Of a stretch of DNA of 64,000 bases, positions 13,410 to 20,860 are shown in pieces (positions within the stretch are counted from its first letter, which is position 1; every line of letters starts with the position of its first letter). Origin of the DNA: Clitopilus passeckerianus (lineage: Eukaryota; Basidiomycota; Agaricomycetes; Agaricales; Entolomataceae); contig CALYLX010000126.1 of the NCBI GenBank assembly GCA_944990035.1, positions 2,170,001 through 2,234,000 on the forward strand, in the 5' to 3' direction. The notes beneath the pieces were generated by a model that made no database searches, was not told the DNA's origin, and worked only from the letters and a program-made list of their open reading frames with translations. The translations under genes and the position numbers were made by a program.

Positions 13410-15533
13410 ATGACTTGCTGCGAGGAGCGAGCACTCGAATGGTCAGACGAGGCGGGCTCACATATCTGCACGTCGTGCGGCTCGCTGCTAGACCCGACGC
13501 AGTCTGTGCTCTCAGTCCCTGAATACAACGTTAACGCCTTGGGTCATGCCTCATACAACCCATGGGACCACTCCAAGGAATCTCGAGACTCCAAACAACT
13601 CACTGTCATAAGACAGTTCATCTCATCGCTTTGCGTATCGCTCTCGTGTACTGGTGTTCAAGAACAAACCACAAGTCTTTTCATGCGAGCCAAAAAAGCC
13701 CCAATTCCAAAGTTTACATGGGGCAAAAAAGCAAGGCTCGTTGCCGCGGCATGCCTGTATATCACGCTACGGGAGGCCAGACAATCGTGCTCTATGTACG
13801 ACTTGTCTAATCTCTTAGCCGAAGAGAGAACATCTTCCCTTGTACGATGCATTTTTGACGTTTCCTCGGCTCTCAAACTACCCTTTGTGCCCTCAGATCC
13901 TTCAATCCACATCCCCGACCTGTTCAACTATTTATCCTCCACCCTCTCAGAACAGCCGAAGGTCCTTCCAGAGGCGATTGTCAAAGCGCTGACTTCACCC
14001 GGGTTCTCCCTACGGCAAGCATCACACACCGCCGAAGCTATCACAGCTCTCCTTGCCCGCCATGGGCCTGATCACCCGTTGTCCTCCCTACCCACTCCTC
14101 CTACTGCTTGTGCATGTTTCATGCTTGCAATTGAAGGAGAGCTCCGCGCATCCCTCAGCAACGTTGCTATGCTTGCGGAGCACCTTGGAATTCGGGTCAA
14201 AATTGGCAAGACGGCCGTTATGAAACGGTACAAGCTCGTACAGGACGAGCTGATGTCGTGTGTTGAACGTGTACCTTGGCTCAAAAGCTACGACAGCAAG
14301 GACAAAGCCGCACGGTATAAGGCGGGAAACGGCAAAAGGTCTCTTGTCGCAAAGGGTCTGCATGACATCCTGCGGTTCCAGGAGGAAATATGGAAGAACA
14401 ACCTAGTGAAGGTTGACCTACCGGTGGGGAGTCCTTCACCCGACGCAGAATCGACCGGTGATTTGGATCAACCGATACCCGCAACTACATCGCTTCCCGA
14501 GCTGGCCCAGCTTGGGCAACCGCAGGAGGAAGATACCCCTCCAAGAGCACTCAAACGACGGAAAATGAGTCACGACAAAGAAAATCGTCCAATGGACGAA
14601 GCCACTAGATTCTTAATCAACCCTTTAGAAGCGCATATACCCACCATAAATTATACGGACGATCAATACCAGGACAATTCCACGCATATTCCCCAGCATT
14701 CTACATTTCATTCTAATTCTGCGATACCTCCACCTCCTCTTACACTACCTCCAACTTTGGGACCCACCAATTTTCAATCAAATTCGGCTGTAGCTCCGAC
14801 TTCGCAGGAGAAACTGTACAAGAAAAGGTCTCGACAAGTGCCGTTGTCTTTCGCCTCTTACCTTCTTACGGCACCAACTCCCAACCCGAGCGGAGCTGCC
14901 ATCTCGGACTTGGGCGCCTTCTTCTTCGAGGACATGAAGAAGAAACCACCAACGCGACTCCAAATGCTCACAGCATACTATGGGAGCGCTGAAGCCGTAC
15001 CCGACGAAGAGCTCTTCGGTGAGGGTGAATGGCAGACGCTTCTTAGGGATGACGCGGAGCGGGACGTTGTTGAGAGGATCATGAGGGAGAGAGGAGAATG
15101 GGAGAGTGATGTCGAGGAAGAGGTGAAAGAACAACCCGTCAAAGCGCGTGTTGGGAGGAAGAGGAAGTTGAGGGAGGGTGAGCAACCGCCGCCAAGGAAG
15201 AGTCGGATCAACGTCGATGCATTGGCGTCTTTCATGACCGACGACGCTGTGGCCTTAGGAGACTATGGAGCTGATTTTGAAGATGAAGGGGAACGACGGG
15301 CTGAGTACAGCTCGATGCTCCTAGGTCTCCAGCGATTCAACAGCCAGAGCGGAAGCGAGAAGAGTCCTAGTATCCTGGGGCTCAGTGATGATGAAGACGA
15401 GGGTATGGATGATTCGAACACGCCTTCCACCAGGGCAACATCCAGTACCGATAAGGATGAAGAACTTATCGTGGACGATTGGAGACCAGCTTCACCGGTA
15501 GGAGGCGGAAACTGGGATGAGGACTGGTATTGA
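13410..15533 (+). CDS. Divergent TFIIB/BRF-family transcription factor, intronless
   Basis: A 707-residue protein on one exon. The ATG at 13410 is chosen because it begins the zinc-ribbon region: CC near residue 3, then HICTSCGSLLD near residues 20-30. The first knuckle shows adjacent cysteines rather than the usual CxxC. Residues about 55-300 form two cyclin-like helical repeats (RQFISSLCVSLSC, KKARLVAAACLYITLREARQSC, later TACACFMLAIEGELRASLSNVAMLAEHLG), as in TFIIB and Brf1. The C-terminal half is disordered and charged, with one more ordered piece (LQMLTAYYGSAEAVPDEELF, EWQTLLRDDAERDVVERIM) and an acidic end. TFIIB-family factors recruit RNA polymerase II or III; which one is used here cannot be told. 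The glycine-rich B-reader segment usual in Brf1 is not visible, so an ordinary Brf1 is unlikely. Confidence 0.7.
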   Translation: MTCCEERALEWSDEAGSHICTSCGSLLDPTQSVLSVPEYNVNALGHASYNPWDHSKESRDSKQLTVIRQFISSLCVSLSCTGVQEQTTSLFMRAKKAPIPKFTWGKKARLVAAACLYITLREARQSCSMYDLSNLLAEERTSSLVRCIFDVSSALKLPFVPSDPSIHIPDLFNYLSSTLSEQPKVLPEAIVKALTSPGFSLRQASHTAEAITALLARHGPDHPLSSLPTPPTACACFMLAIEGELRASLSNVAMLAEHLGIRVKIGKTAVMKRYKLVQDELMSCVERVPWLKSYDSKDKAARYKAGNGKRSLVAKGLHDILRFQEEIWKNNLVKVDLPVGSPSPDAESTGDLDQPIPATTSLPELAQLGQPQEEDTPPRALKRRKMSHDKENRPMDEATRFLINPLEAHIPTINYTDDQYQDNSTHIPQHSTFHSNSAIPPPPLTLPPTLGPTNFQSNSAVAPTSQEKLYKKRSRQVPLSFASYLLTAPTPNPSGAAISDLGAFFFEDMKKKPPTRLQMLTAYYGSAEAVPDEELFGEGEWQTLLRDDAERDVVERIMRERGEWESDVEEEVKEQPVKARVGRKRKLREGEQPPPRKSRINVDALASFMTDDAVALGDYGADFEDEGERRAEYSSMLLGLQRFNSQSGSEKSPSILGLSDDEDEGMDDSNTPSTRATSSTDKDEELIVDDWRPASPVGGGNWDEDWY

Positions 15534-16252
15534 GTGTGGGCGATTTACTAAGTCCTGTTTGCAGCGATATTCCCGGCCCCTCACGCTTGTTTTCTTAGTT
15601 CCTGCAGTTACATTTGGCTCGAAGTCTTTAGTGTATTTGTTAGTTTTCGATAGCGTATGGGAAAGTTGTGTATGTAGAAGATAATTAAGACCTTGTAGTA
15701 TAATCAAATAGTAGCCTAATATTGTATACGACCCTGTTTTATCCAACAAACATGTTTCAGTGTTGGAAACCCGAAAAGTCTTCCATAGCTTGCTTGACCA
15801 GGCAATTTGGTATCCTCAGTCGTCCGCCACAAGCCAGCCTAGGCTATTTCGAGCTCATACTCCATATTCGAGGCGGTTTTGACTTGTGTGACTTTGGACA
15901 ACTGCACCTGCAGGCTTTTCCTGTTTTAACGGGAATAGGAAGGACACCAGCCGCCTTCCTTTTATCTTGTCGTTATTCACAGGCTCTAGGTATCCGGTCG
16001 TGAACCCGAGGCACAGGGTTATTTCTATCTATGTACTGGACCGAGAGCAGTTTCCATGGTCGCGACAACTTGAAAGAAGTGTTACATGGTTTGTCCCACG
16101 GCGTGCGTGGCTGGTAAAGGAGAGTCGGTGCGTTCAACTTCCTATTACGAGATCATCCTTGGCTCAATGAAAAATAGTTCGAATCAGGAGGGTTACCTAC
16201 GAATTCACAACCCGCGACGGGTGGCAAAGTTTCCGGTCCTGAATGTGCATTG
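15534..16252. other. Intergenic stretch; may hold the 5' exon of locus A
   Basis: No independent gene recognised. The frame of locus A stays open upstream to an acceptor-like AATAG near 16174 and reads QPATGGKV at 16208-16231, which resembles the histone-H3-like segment of locus B with the ARK part missing. The true first exon could therefore lie here. Confidence 0.4.
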
Positions 16253-17303
16253 ATGGAGAGTCTAAGAGCAAGGGCACGGCCGAGAAAGAGACAATGCGAT
16301 CCTCTGGTAAAGCGCATGAAACAGACTGCCGAAAATCCAACTAGTTCGGTAGACTTGTTGAAGTGGATGAGGACGATCTATTCCCAGATAGCCCTCCTCC
16401 TAAGAAGGTGCGGACATTCCCATAGGCGGCCATCTTTGAAGGAGATTATGACCCAGGAATCCGATAGACCCATCCATATCCAAGAGCTATTATGAATCGC
16501 CATCAATACCACAAGCAAGCACTGTCGAGCCTTTGTTTTCGCAAGAATGGTAACAAACATATCCCATCCATAAGGATTGGCCAAACTTCCTCAAGCAACG
16601 TCTCTCGGAGAGATGACTCTCCAAGTACTAGCCTCCCTTCCATCCGCCCAGCACACACTTCAAACCGACGGCCACGAGAGGGGAATCCACCCTATAGAGA
16701 CGAACTCACCGACTCTCGTGGAAATAGTATGATGACGATTCCATCTGCCATGCCGACTCGGAACAATGACATGGACGTCGCCACCATACTAGCTGCAATG
16801 CAGCAACAATTAACGGAAATGCGAGCAGAATCAAAGATCTTCGCAGCCAATTGCAATCTAGCAATCAGGATCTCAATACACAATGCAGCGGCCTGGTAGA
16901 TAGCTTCAAAGACGGAATGTCTTCCTTCAAAGCCGATATGCACCTACTCGGTGATCCAGTGGTGTCAAAACTTCCAGCATTGGAGGATAGATTGGAAAGA
17001 AATCACCAGGCGACCCGGGAGTGTCGCGGAGAAGTACGATCCATCAGGGAGGAGATCAGTGATTTGAAGTCACAGATGGAGTCTGGGGTTCAAGAGATGA
17101 AGGATTCCATTCAGGGCGCGCAACAAATCGCATGTGACTATAGCAATTCGGTCAAGGTGGCTTTGGAAAACGTAAAGAAAGAGGCCGCCGAGGCTCGGAT
17201 ACCGCCTACCCCAATCCATGAAGGTTCACCAGAGCCTGGCCCCAGCAGAAAGAAGAGGAAAATTACGATCGCAGGAATAGATATTGTCGTTGACGCGGAG
17301 TGA
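16253..17303 (+). pseudogene. Locus A: coiled-coil protein, frameshifted paralog of locus B
   Basis: Reads MESLRARARPRKRQCDPL, then (after a possible 38 bp intron ending AACTAG) VEVDEDDLFPDSPPPKK, a GTGCGG...CGATAG intron, and a Ser/Arg-rich segment. It continues as coiled coil alignable to locus B: AMQQQLTEMRAE / KDLRSQL, ADMHLLGDPVVSKLPALEDR, RECRGEVRSIREEISDLKSQ, and the end PSRKKRKITIAGIDIVVDAE. Between GCAGAA and TCAAAG at 16830/16831 one A is missing relative to B (GCAGAAATCAAGG), which breaks the frame in the middle of a conserved helix. Either the copy is dead or this is a sequencing error. No known domain; the KKRK patch suggests nuclear location. It is the nearest paralog of locus B, about 1.5 kb away in tandem. 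Confidence 0.55.
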
Positions 17304-17725: not shown

Positions 17726-18983
17726 ATGGATCTTGATAAAGAGCAACAAGTATGTTTAGACTGTGGTTTCCTATCGAACATTACACTAATATGATTGTAG
17801 CACGAAGCTAGAAGGTCAAATACGCATCCACGACGCAGACAGACAGCACGTAAAATCACTGGATCAAAACCTCCAAAGGCGAGAAACTTGTTTTGAATAC
17901 CTTAGCCGACACTCATCTTTGACCAAAAGCAGGCCACTCGTGTACCCACTGATTCGATGGCTTCAGACGCTTCGACGAATTGCGAAGCAGTCTCTACTAA
18001 ACCTCTTCGTTCTCGTCAGAGAACTTCTAAACGGGTGGGATATATCCTGGACGGCGAACTTCCGCAGAATTGAGCAGATCTGATAGGTCCCTACAAGATC
18101 TCCTACAAATAACTCTGGGTTCCCATTGCAAGCACCTTCCCAGCAGAGTTCGACACCCATCGGCCCAGCCCATGCTGTTCCCCACCTCTCGAAGGAGGAC
18201 ACAATTAATAGAAAACCTTCCCCGGCAAACGACGAAATTTTTGTAAGGCGACCGAAAACGCTTCCTTCTCATCGTCCACCGAATAACAATCCTGCTATCG
18301 GCCAAGAGAAATCTACATCAAAGACCTGCGGTGTTTCGGCCATGTCTACCACAAGCGCAAGCACGTTTTTCGTGCGGGACACTGCCAACTTCCGGAAGAG
18401 GAATATGACAACAACTCCGTCGTTTATCGCTGGGCCTACACCGAATGATGATGTCTATGTTGCTACCACGCTGGCAACAATGCAGAAGGACTTGACAGGA
18501 ATGCGAGCAGAAATCAAGGATCTTCGAACACAGTTACGATCGAGCCATCAGGATATTAGCACTCATTGTAGGGGCCTGGCATACGATTTTAGAGAGGAGG
18601 TCTCTACTTTGAAAGATGACCTTCATCTTCTTGGAGATCCACTAGCATCAAAAATCCCACTCCTCGAGGATAAGATGGAAGCCAATCACCAGGAGGCGCG
18701 GGAGTGTCATGGTGAAGTACGTTCTATCCGAGAGGAACTTAGCGATTTGAGAGCACAGATGGGCTCTGGGTTCCGGGAGGTGAAGGAATCCATCCACGAC
18801 GCTAAACAGGTCGCATGCAACTACGCCGACTCACTCCAGGTGACAATGGAAAAGGTGAAGAAGGAAGCCGTCGAGGCACAGATACCCCCAGCTCCCAACC
18901 GTGACGAGTCTCCAGAGCCTGGACCGAGTAGGAAAAAACGGAAAATCACGATCGCGGGAATTGATCTGGTCATTGACGCGTAG
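17726..18983 (+). CDS. Locus B: intact H3-tail-like, coiled-coil protein of unknown function
   Basis: Four exons, 17726-17749, 17801-17878, 17933-18034 and 18087-18983, all joined in phase 0, give 366 residues. Introns are GTATGT...TGTAG, a GC-AG intron (AAG|GCGAGA...AGCAG, 54 nt) and GTGGGA...GATAG. Exon 2 encodes RQTARKITGSKPPK, which matches 9 of 13 positions of the histone H3 tail QTARKSTGGKAPR. A disordered Ser/Pro-rich middle follows, then about 150 residues of coiled coil (DLTGMRAEIKDLRTQL, DDLHLLGDPLASKIPLLEDK, RECHGEVRSIREELSDLRAQ), then SPEPGPSRKKRKITIAGID and the stop. The H3-like part could be a substrate or decoy for histone-tail enzymes or readers; that is inference. The GC donor is the weakest point of the model: without it the frame stops at TGA 17894-17896, and translation could start at ATG 17957, leaving the H3-like exon out. 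Confidence 0.6.
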
Positions 18984-19204
18984 GAGGTTCTCCAGGAAGT
19001 GAAAGTCGACGACGTAGGTAAAGCTAGAATACGAAGAACTACTGCTCGAGATTGAAGGTTCCTGATTTCTGCTGCTAGTATTTTGATTGATCACGGAAAT
19101 GATGTATAATAATTTACACGAGGCAAAACACGAGGATGACTATACGGCAGTGCCCCCGGTCCAATGGTCATTCTCCCTAGTAGTAAACTCAATCAGATCC
19201 CCAG

Positions 19205-19869
19205 ATGTTTGGCGAAGACCAGTCCTCTGTGAGTTTATCACAACCTACTTTCAGCTGAGATTTCAGATTCAACTATCTCTGGTTGCAGAGCGGCAATGTA
19301 GATTCCGGCAAGAAACCAAGACCGAAGTAAACTGCACGCAAGTCAACTGGAACAAAGCCTCCTCAACCTCGACGTCCCAGGGCTCCGTCAAAGGTCAAAG
19401 CCACTGCTGCCGCCAAGAAGGCTACCATGGGAGCTGCGTCGAAAGGGAAAAGAGGAACCTCTAACTCCTTGAATTCCGGGGAGTCTTCCGGGGAACCTTC
19501 CGAGATCATACAGATGTCTGCGGAATCGGTAAGCCGCGATGGATGGATAGTTCAAAGTGAAGAAGTTGACGGAAGATCGCAATGCAGCTTAAAGTGCAGG
19601 AAGACCTAGTACAACTTGGTTATACCATACAGGAGGCCCAAACACCACTGAAAGCCCCTGAGTTGAAGGCAGACGATCCCCCAGCCGCCATTCTGGAGAT
19701 GCTTCGAGATATCCGTCAGGAAATGAAGGAAATGGGTGACGAGTTTCGTTACGATGTGCAAGAGGTGACTGAGAGATTGGATATGTTGGTAGGAAACTAC
19801 GCAGACCTCCATATGGACGTGAAAGCACTACGTGGGCTAGATCTTGAATACGACTTCGACCGACAATAG
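19205..19869 (+). pseudogene. Locus C: H3-tail-like coiled-coil gene with an ochre stop
   Basis: ATG at 19205 (MFGEDQSS), GTGAGT...TTGCAG intron 19229-19288, then SGNVDSGKKPRPK, TAA at 19328-19330, and in the same frame TARKSTGTKPPQPRRPRAPS. Around the stop the reading PK-stop-TARKSTGTKPP matches histone H3 TKQTARKSTGGKAP, with the stop exactly at Gln5 (CAA to TAA is one transition). A basic segment (KVKATAAAKKA) and a Ser-rich part ending MSAES follow. After a likely GTAAGC...TGCAG intron comes a coiled coil (AILEMLRDIRQEMKEMGDEF, VTERLDMLVGNYADLHMDV), then the stop at 19867-19869. Most simply a nonsense-mutated member of the family; a splice that removes the TAA was not found. Confidence 0.5.
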
Positions 19870-20160
19870 ACCGACTGTTCTTCTGACCCGACGAATAAAC
19901 GAATTTAACCAACCAGTGAGCGCATCGCGACGCGTCGATCAGATTCTAATGGGCTCTTCAACTATCCTTCTTCCACCATAGCCTCACGCTCTACGTAGTC
20001 AAGTCACTAAGTTCTTTGTGGCAGGATTTCAGCCCAGTAAAAATAGGAGAACCTCGCGCATTTAAGGTGAGCATTCAGCTGCAAGGAGTAGTGGCGCGAC
20101 TGACTCAGCTAAATGGTGATCACGTCTCTCAGCCGTCGACGACCACGGTCAACAAACCAA

Positions 20161-20860
20161 TGGTCGGACAAGGCGAGCCCGTTCGTGTGCGCCAGCCTTC
20201 GATTTCCAGAATGCCAGCGGCACCAAAGCTTTCAGCCAGAAAAAGCCAAAACACGCCAGGAATGACGACTGGAGGTAGGATGCCACGGCGTGCTAGAGCC
20301 CCACCAAGAGAAAAGGCAGCCACCGCAGTTCGAAAAGAAGCGAAGGCTGCAACTTGGAACTTAATGTCAGAGGACTGGGGCCCTGGAAGGGGATGGTGCC
20401 AGTGCGTGACTGGCGGGAGTTAAGGGAACGTCTGAAAGCCTTTGATATGAGGCTGCCATACGAGGTAGGAATCCTTATTCAATGACCACATTACGTATTG
20501 AACGTCGTTTTTCAGCTTATGAACTGCATACCAGTTGGTGAAAGGTTCCGTTTCACCCAAGAGGCGACACCATCGGGATCGGAGAGCTACCAGCCACGCA
20601 CCGACGATGCTCAGGCTGAGATTCTAACCAAGCTAGACAAGATCCAAGAAGAAATCCAGGAGCTAAGAGACAAATTTTCTTTGAGAATGGATGCCCTGGA
20701 TACAAGATTTGAAGACCTTATGTACCAATTTCAAAATAGTGCAGACGGCATCTTGGATGAAGAACTTGACCACTGGACCCAAATTTTATTTGCTCTGCAA
20801 CTTTATCCTTTACCTACACGTAGTAATAAAGTCCATATGTACTCTCCAATACTTTTCTGA
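20161..20860 (+). pseudogene. Locus D: H3-tail-like coiled-coil gene, frame disrupted
   Basis: The open frame around 20120-20360 reads PKLSARKSQNTPGMTTGGRM then PRRARAPPREK and a Lys/Ala-rich stretch like that of locus C (RRPRAPSKVKATAAAKK versus RRARAPPREKAATAVRKEAK). The ARKS...TGG(R)MPRR order matches the H3 tail with an insertion between ARKS and TGG. A different frame then reads VPVRDWRELRERLKAFDMRL, a GTAGGA...TTTCAG intron, and the coiled coil EILTKLDKIQEEIQELRDKF. No GT-AG pair was found that joins the two frames, so the copy is probably broken near 20360. The true start is uncertain; 20161 is the first ATG in the N-terminal frame. Confidence 0.42.

What the first reader, a model, noticed from the sequence alone, without database searches (positions are those of the whole stretch)
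17726..20360. Histone H3 tail mimicry in an array of coiled-coil genes
Locus B encodes RQTARKITGSKPPK near its N-terminus, locus C encodes PK-stop-TARKSTGTKPP, and locus D encodes KLSARKS followed by TTGGRMPRR. Histone H3 begins ARTKQTARKSTGGKAP, so B matches 9 of 13 positions from Gln5 and C matches T6-A-R-K9-S-T-G12 exactly. These genes are not histones: no histone fold follows, only disordered sequence and coiled coil, with a KKRK patch in B. Histone mimics (ARTK or ARKS-like sites in non-histone proteins) are known as substrates of SET-domain methyltransferases and ligands of chromodomains or PHD fingers. I do not know of a described fungal family with this layout. Function as decoy, substrate or chromatin tether is inference.
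Basis: partly seen in the sequence, partly recalled or inferred. Interest (0 to 1): 0.82.

Follow-up and report, generated by a model that had tools for sequence, protein, structure and literature searches.

The report
Fungal genes mimicking histone H3 tail
A fungus carries a small cluster of changeable genes whose proteins bear, near their start, a close copy of the histone H3 tail around lysine 9 joined to coiled-coil segments, which suggests that they engage the cell's own gene-silencing machinery, although nothing has yet been shown by experiment.

Summary
The genome (64.8 Mb, fungal) holds a second, collinear copy of the array on contig C32 (L009), most likely the other haplotype. There locus C reads KQTARKSTGTKPP with no stop, and locus D reads RQTARKTTGGKMPRR. 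In the window, C has a stop exactly at the Gln5 codon and D a 7-bp deletion inside the motif. B is open on both copies. In six frames genome-wide, QTARKxTG occurs 12 times: 8 at histone H3 genes, 4 in this array; reversed-pattern control 0. A profile of the B/C/D first exons against PDB sequences lists histone H3 (or H3 peptides and fusions) in all 60 rows shown of 136 (best E 2.2e-5). B shows purifying selection between copies (dN/dS 0.39, p 4.5e-5). No histone domain was found, only disorder and long helices. The genome encodes a Pre-SET/SET (H3K9-type) methyltransferase with two ARK(S/T) sites just upstream. Best explanation: nuclear coiled-coil proteins with an H3K9-mimic tail, probably a methylation substrate and chromodomain ligand (inferred, untested). 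No homologues found, but the database seems to hold no close relative. A new variant of a known kind.

The parts
13413..15533 (+). Left flank: TFIIB/BRF1-like gene (stop-to-stop ORF starts 13218)
   Evidence: Pfam TFIIB repeat 21.7 bits, just under the cut-off of 23.6; only database hit 'Transcription initiation factor IIB [Psilocybe cubensis]', 38% identity; BRF1 is my own reading
16048..16113 (.). Short stretch inverted between the two copies, at the expected first exon of A
   Evidence: 66-bp match at 97% in the orientation opposite to the flanking alignment
16770..17303 (+). Locus A: coiled-coil remnant, paralogue of B (61% identity), ending PSRKKRKITIAGIDIVVDAE; its upstream part lies in another frame in the window copy; no ARKS motif
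17726..17749 (+). Locus B exon 1 (MDLDKEQQ)
17801..17878 (+). Locus B exon 2; holds the H3-like block
   Evidence: identical block in the second copy
17840..17878 (+). H3-like block of B: QTARKITGSKPPK (H3 Q5-R17, 9 of 13 identical)
17933..18034 (+). Locus B exon 3 (reached by a GC-AG intron 17879-17932, phase 0)
   Evidence: splice sites present in both copies
18087..18983 (+). Locus B exon 4: disordered stretch, two long helices, basic KKRK, C-terminal KITIAGIDLVIDA
19205..19228 (+). Locus C exon 1 (MFGEDQSS)
19289..19528 (+). Locus C exon 2; in the window copy it carries a stop at 19328-19330
19328..19363 (+). H3-like block of C: stop-TARKSTGTKPP here, QTARKSTGTKPP in the second copy
19588..19869 (+). 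Locus C exon 3: short coiled-coil-like segment
20160..20186 (+). Locus D exon 1 (MVGQGEPVR), inferred
20236..20300 (+). Locus D exon 2 start and broken H3-like block (7-bp deletion after 20259 relative to QTARKTTGGKMPRR in the second copy)
20516..20785 (+). Locus D coiled-coil-like exon, related to C exon 3 (28% identity); the frame stays open to 20860 in the window

Best explanation
A small, changeable, possibly lineage-restricted family of nuclear coiled-coil proteins. Their disordered N-termini imitate the histone H3 tail from Gln5 to Pro16, with the block [KR]QTARKxTGxKxP kept and little else. Shown: the sequences, their conservation between copies and paralogues, their rarity in the genome and the lack of a histone domain. 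Inferred: the lysine matching K9 is methylated by the cell's own H3K9-type (Pre-SET/SET) enzyme and then bound by chromodomain proteins of the HP1 kind; the coiled coil makes the protein oligomeric, so that it acts as a many-handed scaffold or tether for heterochromatin factors; and the basic KKRK patch may take it to the nucleus. The array looks like birth-and-death evolution: by the models, B is open on both copies, C on one, D keeps its motif on one (its later frame is unclear), and A is broken at least in the window.
For: Collinear second copy with intact C and D motifs. QTARKxTG only at H3 genes and here, 8 + 4 of 12, control 0. Looser TARKxxGxK pattern: 15 matches, 5 in the array, 5 at H3 and 5 elsewhere, control 2; of the five others four keep only part of the motif (TARKWHGLK, TASKNSGLK, TASKPLGDK twice) and the fifth, TARKTTGLK, lies in an Hsp70-like frame (label recalled). 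Among B, C and D the block is invariant at 8 of 11 columns against 6 of 33 outside it, p 0.0017, with synonymous changes in 3-5 of 10 codons and amino-acid changes only at the two free positions, so recent copying does not explain the likeness. Profile search of PDB: all 60 rows shown of 136 are H3, H3 peptides or H3 fusions, best E 2.2e-5; D alone best E 0.005, the 60 rows shown of 129 likewise. Purifying selection on B: 36.5 synonymous and 48.5 non-synonymous changes, p 4.5e-5; C p 0.023. Helices at 120-179 and 186-264 of exon 4. Candidate writer: Pre-SET over cut-off on two contigs with a SET match about 560 bp downstream on each; the open frame just upstream has IARKT and IARK(S/T)MG sites.
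Against: B has Ile at H3 Ser10 (ARKI), outside the G9a/GLP motif [GCSAKLN]RK[TGQSVMALNKER] used in PMC10611923. B's N-terminus alone finds PknB before H3 in PDB (H3 E 1.5), and C alone finds H3 only at E 0.24. The block is internal (starting at residue 16-22), not N-terminal as in H3. Selection is not significant in B's first 34 codons alone (p 0.31) or in C's exons 1-2 alone (p 0.40), and B's codons 35-68 look neutral (dN 0.162, dS 0.167). B needs a GC-AG intron. D's frame closes soon after the motif in the second copy. The window copy has lost C and D, so those may be dispensable. No expression data and no homologues. No HP1 chromoshadow domain was found, though that search proves nothing.
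Confidence: 0.45

Rival explanations
1. Chance likeness: one ancestral basic, disordered exon happened to contain QTARK-like letters and was duplicated with the genes; it has no dealings with H3 enzymes.
For: Basic low-complexity tails throw up ARK motifs; QTARK alone is not much commoner than its control (35 against 25); by my own arithmetic, with equal base frequencies, about 0.24 QTARKxTG matches are expected by chance in this genome, so one origin is not absurd; B alone is not significant.
Against: The block stays fixed while the rest of the exon diverges, through synonymous change; the likeness runs on to K14 and P16, and in D to PR (11 of 14); the profile search lists only H3 in the rows shown.
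Confidence: 0.22
2. Decaying relics: the family once mimicked H3 (perhaps by capture of an H3 exon) but is now mostly pseudogenes with no present role.
For: A broken in the window, C and D broken in the window copy; motif codons of C are about as close to one H3 gene as H3 genes are to each other (C to H3_L027 5 of 27 bases, H3 pairs 2-5), so capture is possible.
Against: B is open on both copies with dN/dS 0.39 overall and 0.22 over codons 181-366; C is open on one copy.
Confidence: 0.18
3. Decoy: the proteins bind chromodomains away from real H3K9me, for example those of chromodomain integrases of Ty3/gypsy elements, and so limit or misdirect insertion.
For: The genome is rich in chromodomains: 150 matches, all that were scored of 245 candidates, 35 of them in frames of 800 aa or more (hand count); the one piece examined holds integrase core, SH3_Tf2-1 and chromodomain. 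That chromodomains guide integration into heterochromatin is stated in PMC2864245 (passages). Fast turnover fits a conflict.
Against: No direct link; no sign of diversifying selection in B or C as a whole; only one of the 150 chromodomain frames was examined; known mimics in the papers seen mostly act inside silencing complexes.
Confidence: 0.08
4. The H3-like tail serves another H3-tail enzyme or reader (acetylation at the K14 match, a kinase at the T11 match) rather than the K9 pathway.
For: K14, T11 and G12 are kept beside K9.
Against: Position 10 varies (I/S/T), so phospho-Ser10 reading is unlikely; the free N-terminus and ARTK needed for K4 readers are missing (recalled knowledge).
Confidence: 0.07

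Closest known systems
ATF7IP K16 (H3K9-like mimic methylated by G9a/GLP, read by the MPP8 chromodomain; PMC6172828, passages)
   Same: Non-histone chromatin protein with an H3K9-like site near the N-terminus (FKARKT, K16)
   Different: Vertebrate; the likeness is essentially ARK(T), here it spans Q5 to P16; not described there as a gene array
G9a/GLP automethylated histone mimics (G9a K185/K239, GLP K205; PMC9768651, passages)
   Same: Short H3K9-like sites outside histones; HP1 binding after methylation
   Different: Sites lie in the enzyme itself. The fungal Pre-SET gene L068/L069 noted here is the nearer parallel
Swi6 (fission-yeast HP1) auto-inhibition by an H3-mimic sequence (Canzio et al. 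2013 as cited in PMC7192584, passages)
   Same: A fungal, self-encoded H3 mimic
   Different: Acts within HP1 itself; no coiled-coil gene family
Histone H3
   Same: Tail residues Q5-P16
   Different: No histone domain found, extra N-terminal residues, coiled coil instead

Membership tests
Histone H3 | Histone fold (Pfam core histone domain) | tested here: not met
   No histone family among Pfam hits up to E 0.01 for spliced B, C (second copy) and D (second copy), nor up to E 0.1 for single exons
Histone H3 | ARTKQTARKSTGGKAPRK at the very N-terminus | tested here: not met
   Only Q5-P16-like, with 16-21 residues before it
H3K9-type histone mimics | ARK(S/T)-like site in a non-histone protein | tested here: met
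   C ARKS and D ARKT (second copy); B has ARKI, a departure
H3K9-type histone mimics | Likeness beyond chance | tested here: met
   for the family; B alone fails
H3K9-type histone mimics | Site is methylated by an H3K9 methyltransferase | not testable with these tools
   A candidate writer exists: Pre-SET plus SET on two contigs
H3K9-type histone mimics | Methylated site is bound by a chromodomain | not testable with these tools
   Chromodomains abound, but an HP1 protein was not identified
Known coiled-coil families | Pfam match over the curated cut-off, or fold match | tested here: not met
   All listed Pfam hits of A, B, C and D are below cut-off; Foldseek best E 6.3 on a low-confidence model of B exon 4

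The most novel reading that the evidence does not exclude
A fungus-encoded family of oligomeric H3K9 mimics that compete with, or assemble, the H3K9me reading machinery, perhaps as decoys for chromodomain integrases of its many Ty3/gypsy elements, with haplotypes that differ in the number of working mimics.
Probability: 0.1. Interest if true: 0.85.

Novelty: new variant of a known kind. Interest (0 to 1): 0.62.

Why it matters
The histone mimics in the papers seen here match H3 over a few residues (ARK plus one or so) and sit in single proteins. A self-encoded gene family that keeps about 12 residues of the H3 tail while the rest diverges would give a natural experiment in what the H3K9 writer and readers require (positions 10, 13 and 15 are free; 5-9, 11, 12, 14 and 16 are kept). 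It would also be a way by which a fungus could scaffold or titrate heterochromatin factors. The two copies, with and without working C and D, make this testable by genetics.

Tried and rejected
Homologues: B (366 aa) and C (179 aa, second copy) gave none among 1694 and 201 candidates. As a control the flanking TFIIB-like gene gave a single hit, Psilocybe cubensis at 38% over 45% of the query (only the 7991 candidates sharing most words were scored). This suggests that the database holds no close relative, so the absence means little.

Other paralogues in the genome: C exon 2, B exon 4, C exon 3 and D exon 3 found only the array and its second copy, apart from one marginal hit (C80, E 0.57) (counts there are lower bounds). 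D exon 3 finds C exon 3 only at E 0.385.

A/B versus C/D coiled coils: hhalign probability 13%, E 0.0021; common ancestry of the two pairs is not shown.

Fold search: no usable match. HP1 by chromoshadow: nothing, uninformative. A 104-residue frame next to the Pre-SET part of L069, which looked SET-like to me, matched nothing in Pfam or PDB; the SET evidence rests. A third Pre-SET match (C98:526899) is below the cut-off; I listed the frames of its locus and did not pursue it. The QTARK codon match at window 9797 lies apart from the array and I took it as chance. A GTAAGA donor inside D was considered, but a 54-base intron from it would leave the frame unchanged (reasoned by hand).

Literature: nine searches listed no fungal gene family of H3-tail mimics in the rows shown; most lists were partial (for example 25 of 247, 12 of 141). 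I saw listings with starts of abstracts, and passages in PMC6172828, PMC10611923, PMC10135481, PMC9768651, PMC7192584 and PMC2864245; no paper was read whole.

Full report
Setting. The window is part of contig C125 of a 64.8-Mb, 160-contig assembly. The flanking gene's one hit is from Psilocybe cubensis, so the source is a fungus, probably an agaricomycete; I did not place it further. Contig C32 carries a collinear copy of the array and its flanks at about 88-95% identity, running to the contig end. I read it as the other haplotype ('second copy'); a recent segmental duplication is not excluded, but the Pre-SET gene also occurs twice over cut-off, as in a two-haplotype assembly.

Gene models. 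The two copies were aligned base by base and models read by eye from conserved splice sites. B: exons 17726-17749, 17801-17878, 17933-18034 and 18087-18983, 366 codons, open on both copies (367 in the second). Intron 2 is GC-AG, the others GT-AG; if intron 2 is not removed, a stop follows within 18 bases. C in the second copy: three exons with GT-AG introns, 179 codons, MFGEDQAS-RGNVDSGKKPRPKQTARKSTGTKPP..., joined to a helical exon. In the window the Gln codon at the start of the block is TAA. D in the second copy: MDGQGKPIS-PEQAKIRQTARKTTGGKMPRRVK..., closing at 53 codons; the helical exon further on is open, but how it is joined is unclear. A: paralogue of B's helical part (61-65%), with its coiled coil split between two frames in the window and no ARKS. 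B, C and D share a first exon of 8-9 codons ending in phase 0 and the H3-like block early in exon 2.

Is it H3-like beyond chance? QTARKxTG, 24 bases degenerate, six frames: 12 matches, 8 at H3 genes (L014, L018, L019, L020, L025, L027, L034, L035, as translated; L014 by its likeness to L025), 4 here (B on both copies, C and D on the second), control 0. The shorter QTARK gave 35 against control 25 and is not informative alone. TARKxxGxK gave 15: five in the array (including C of the window), five at H3 and five elsewhere, control 2; the five others were read and none is a comparable mimic. Among 954 stop-to-stop frames of 40 aa or more in the window, the best scorer against H3 Q5-K18 is the broken D block (B's exon 2 frame is shorter than 40 and C's begins after the stop at Gln, so neither full block was in that list). 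Shuffling each of four proteins (B of both copies, C and D of the second) 2000 times never reached the observed score.

Database comparison. A profile of the first exons (B exons 1-3 of both copies, C exons 1-2 and D exons 1-2 of the second) against PDB sequences listed histone H3, H3 peptides or H3 fusions in all 60 rows shown of 136, best E 2.2e-5. Single sequences: D 0.005, C 0.24; B reaches H3 only at 1.5, after PknB. So the likeness is strong in D, fair in C and weak in B taken alone. I chose the exons for the profile knowing the motif.

Constraint. Between B, C and D, 8 of 11 block columns are invariant against 6 of 33 other ungapped columns (p 0.0017; three sequences, so a modest test). 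Codons differ synonymously at 3-5 of 10 positions and by amino acid only at the two free positions. Between copies, B dN/dS is 0.39 (366 codons), 0.22 over codons 181-366, but about 1 over codons 35-68; C 0.38 (178 codons); tests p 4.5e-5 for B and 0.023 for C, but not significant for B's first 34 codons (0.31) or C's exons 1-2 (0.40).

Protein. No histone domain, no family over cut-off. The model of B exon 4 has mean pLDDT 55.6, with residues 1-120 at low confidence, helices 120-179 and 186-264, and two short C-terminal strands; no fold match. The KKRK patch before the C-terminus is kept in A and B on both copies; its nuclear role is inferred.

Machinery. Of three Pre-SET matches two are over cut-off, on C98 and C105, each with a SET match about 560 bases downstream. 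The open frame just upstream of the Pre-SET frame (joining inferred) holds two ARK(S/T) sites on both contigs, QRIARKT(T/A)RR and KSIARK(S/T)MGHRVP. In the window's six-frame ORFs of 40 aa or more ARK(S/T) occurs 5 times in 69218 residues, at least two of these in this array, so two in 272 residues is unusual, allowing for the basic make-up. This recalls G9a automethylation (PMC9768651, passages). Chromodomains are abundant; one piece examined is a Ty3/gypsy-type integrase, and I infer that many others are.

Mechanism. I think it most likely that the tail is an H3K9 mimic used within the fungus's own heterochromatin pathway, made many-valued by the coiled coil. The kept residues (Q5, T6, A7, R8, K9) are those that, from general knowledge, the HP1 chromodomain grips; this is recalled, not tested. 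Ile at position 10 in B is the main sequence argument against. A decoy role against chromodomain integrases is the boldest reading.

Verdict. It looks new as a self-encoded, extended H3 mimic family (within the limits of nine literature searches), inside the known kind 'histone mimicry'.

Noticed in passing
L068:287-1102 (+) and L069:2211-3026 (-): The open frame just upstream of the genome's Pre-SET (H3K9-type) methyltransferase frame has two ARK(S/T) sites, IARKT(T/A)RR and IARK(S/T)MGHRVP, on both contigs, like G9a self-mimics; that the two frames are joined is inferred.
   Followed up: partly
16048-16113 against L009:6952-7017: About 60 bases are inverted between the two copies just where the first exon of locus A is expected, giving A different candidate starts.
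   Followed up: partly
19328-19330 and after 20259: On the window copy both lesions in C and D fall inside the H3-like block itself (a stop at Gln5, a 7-bp deletion), which may be chance or may mean loss of the mimic was favoured.
   Followed up: no
L086 (C125:94000-98000) and the 150 scored matches: Very many chromodomain matches; the one examined lies in a Ty3/gypsy-type integrase (integrase core, SH3_Tf2-1, chromodomain).
   Followed up: partly
about 18915-18980 and 17235-17297: A and B share an almost unchanged C-terminus, EPGPSRKKRKITIAGID(L/I)V(I/V)DA, the best kept stretch of the A/B pair; its role is unknown (the model draws two short strands).
   Followed up: no
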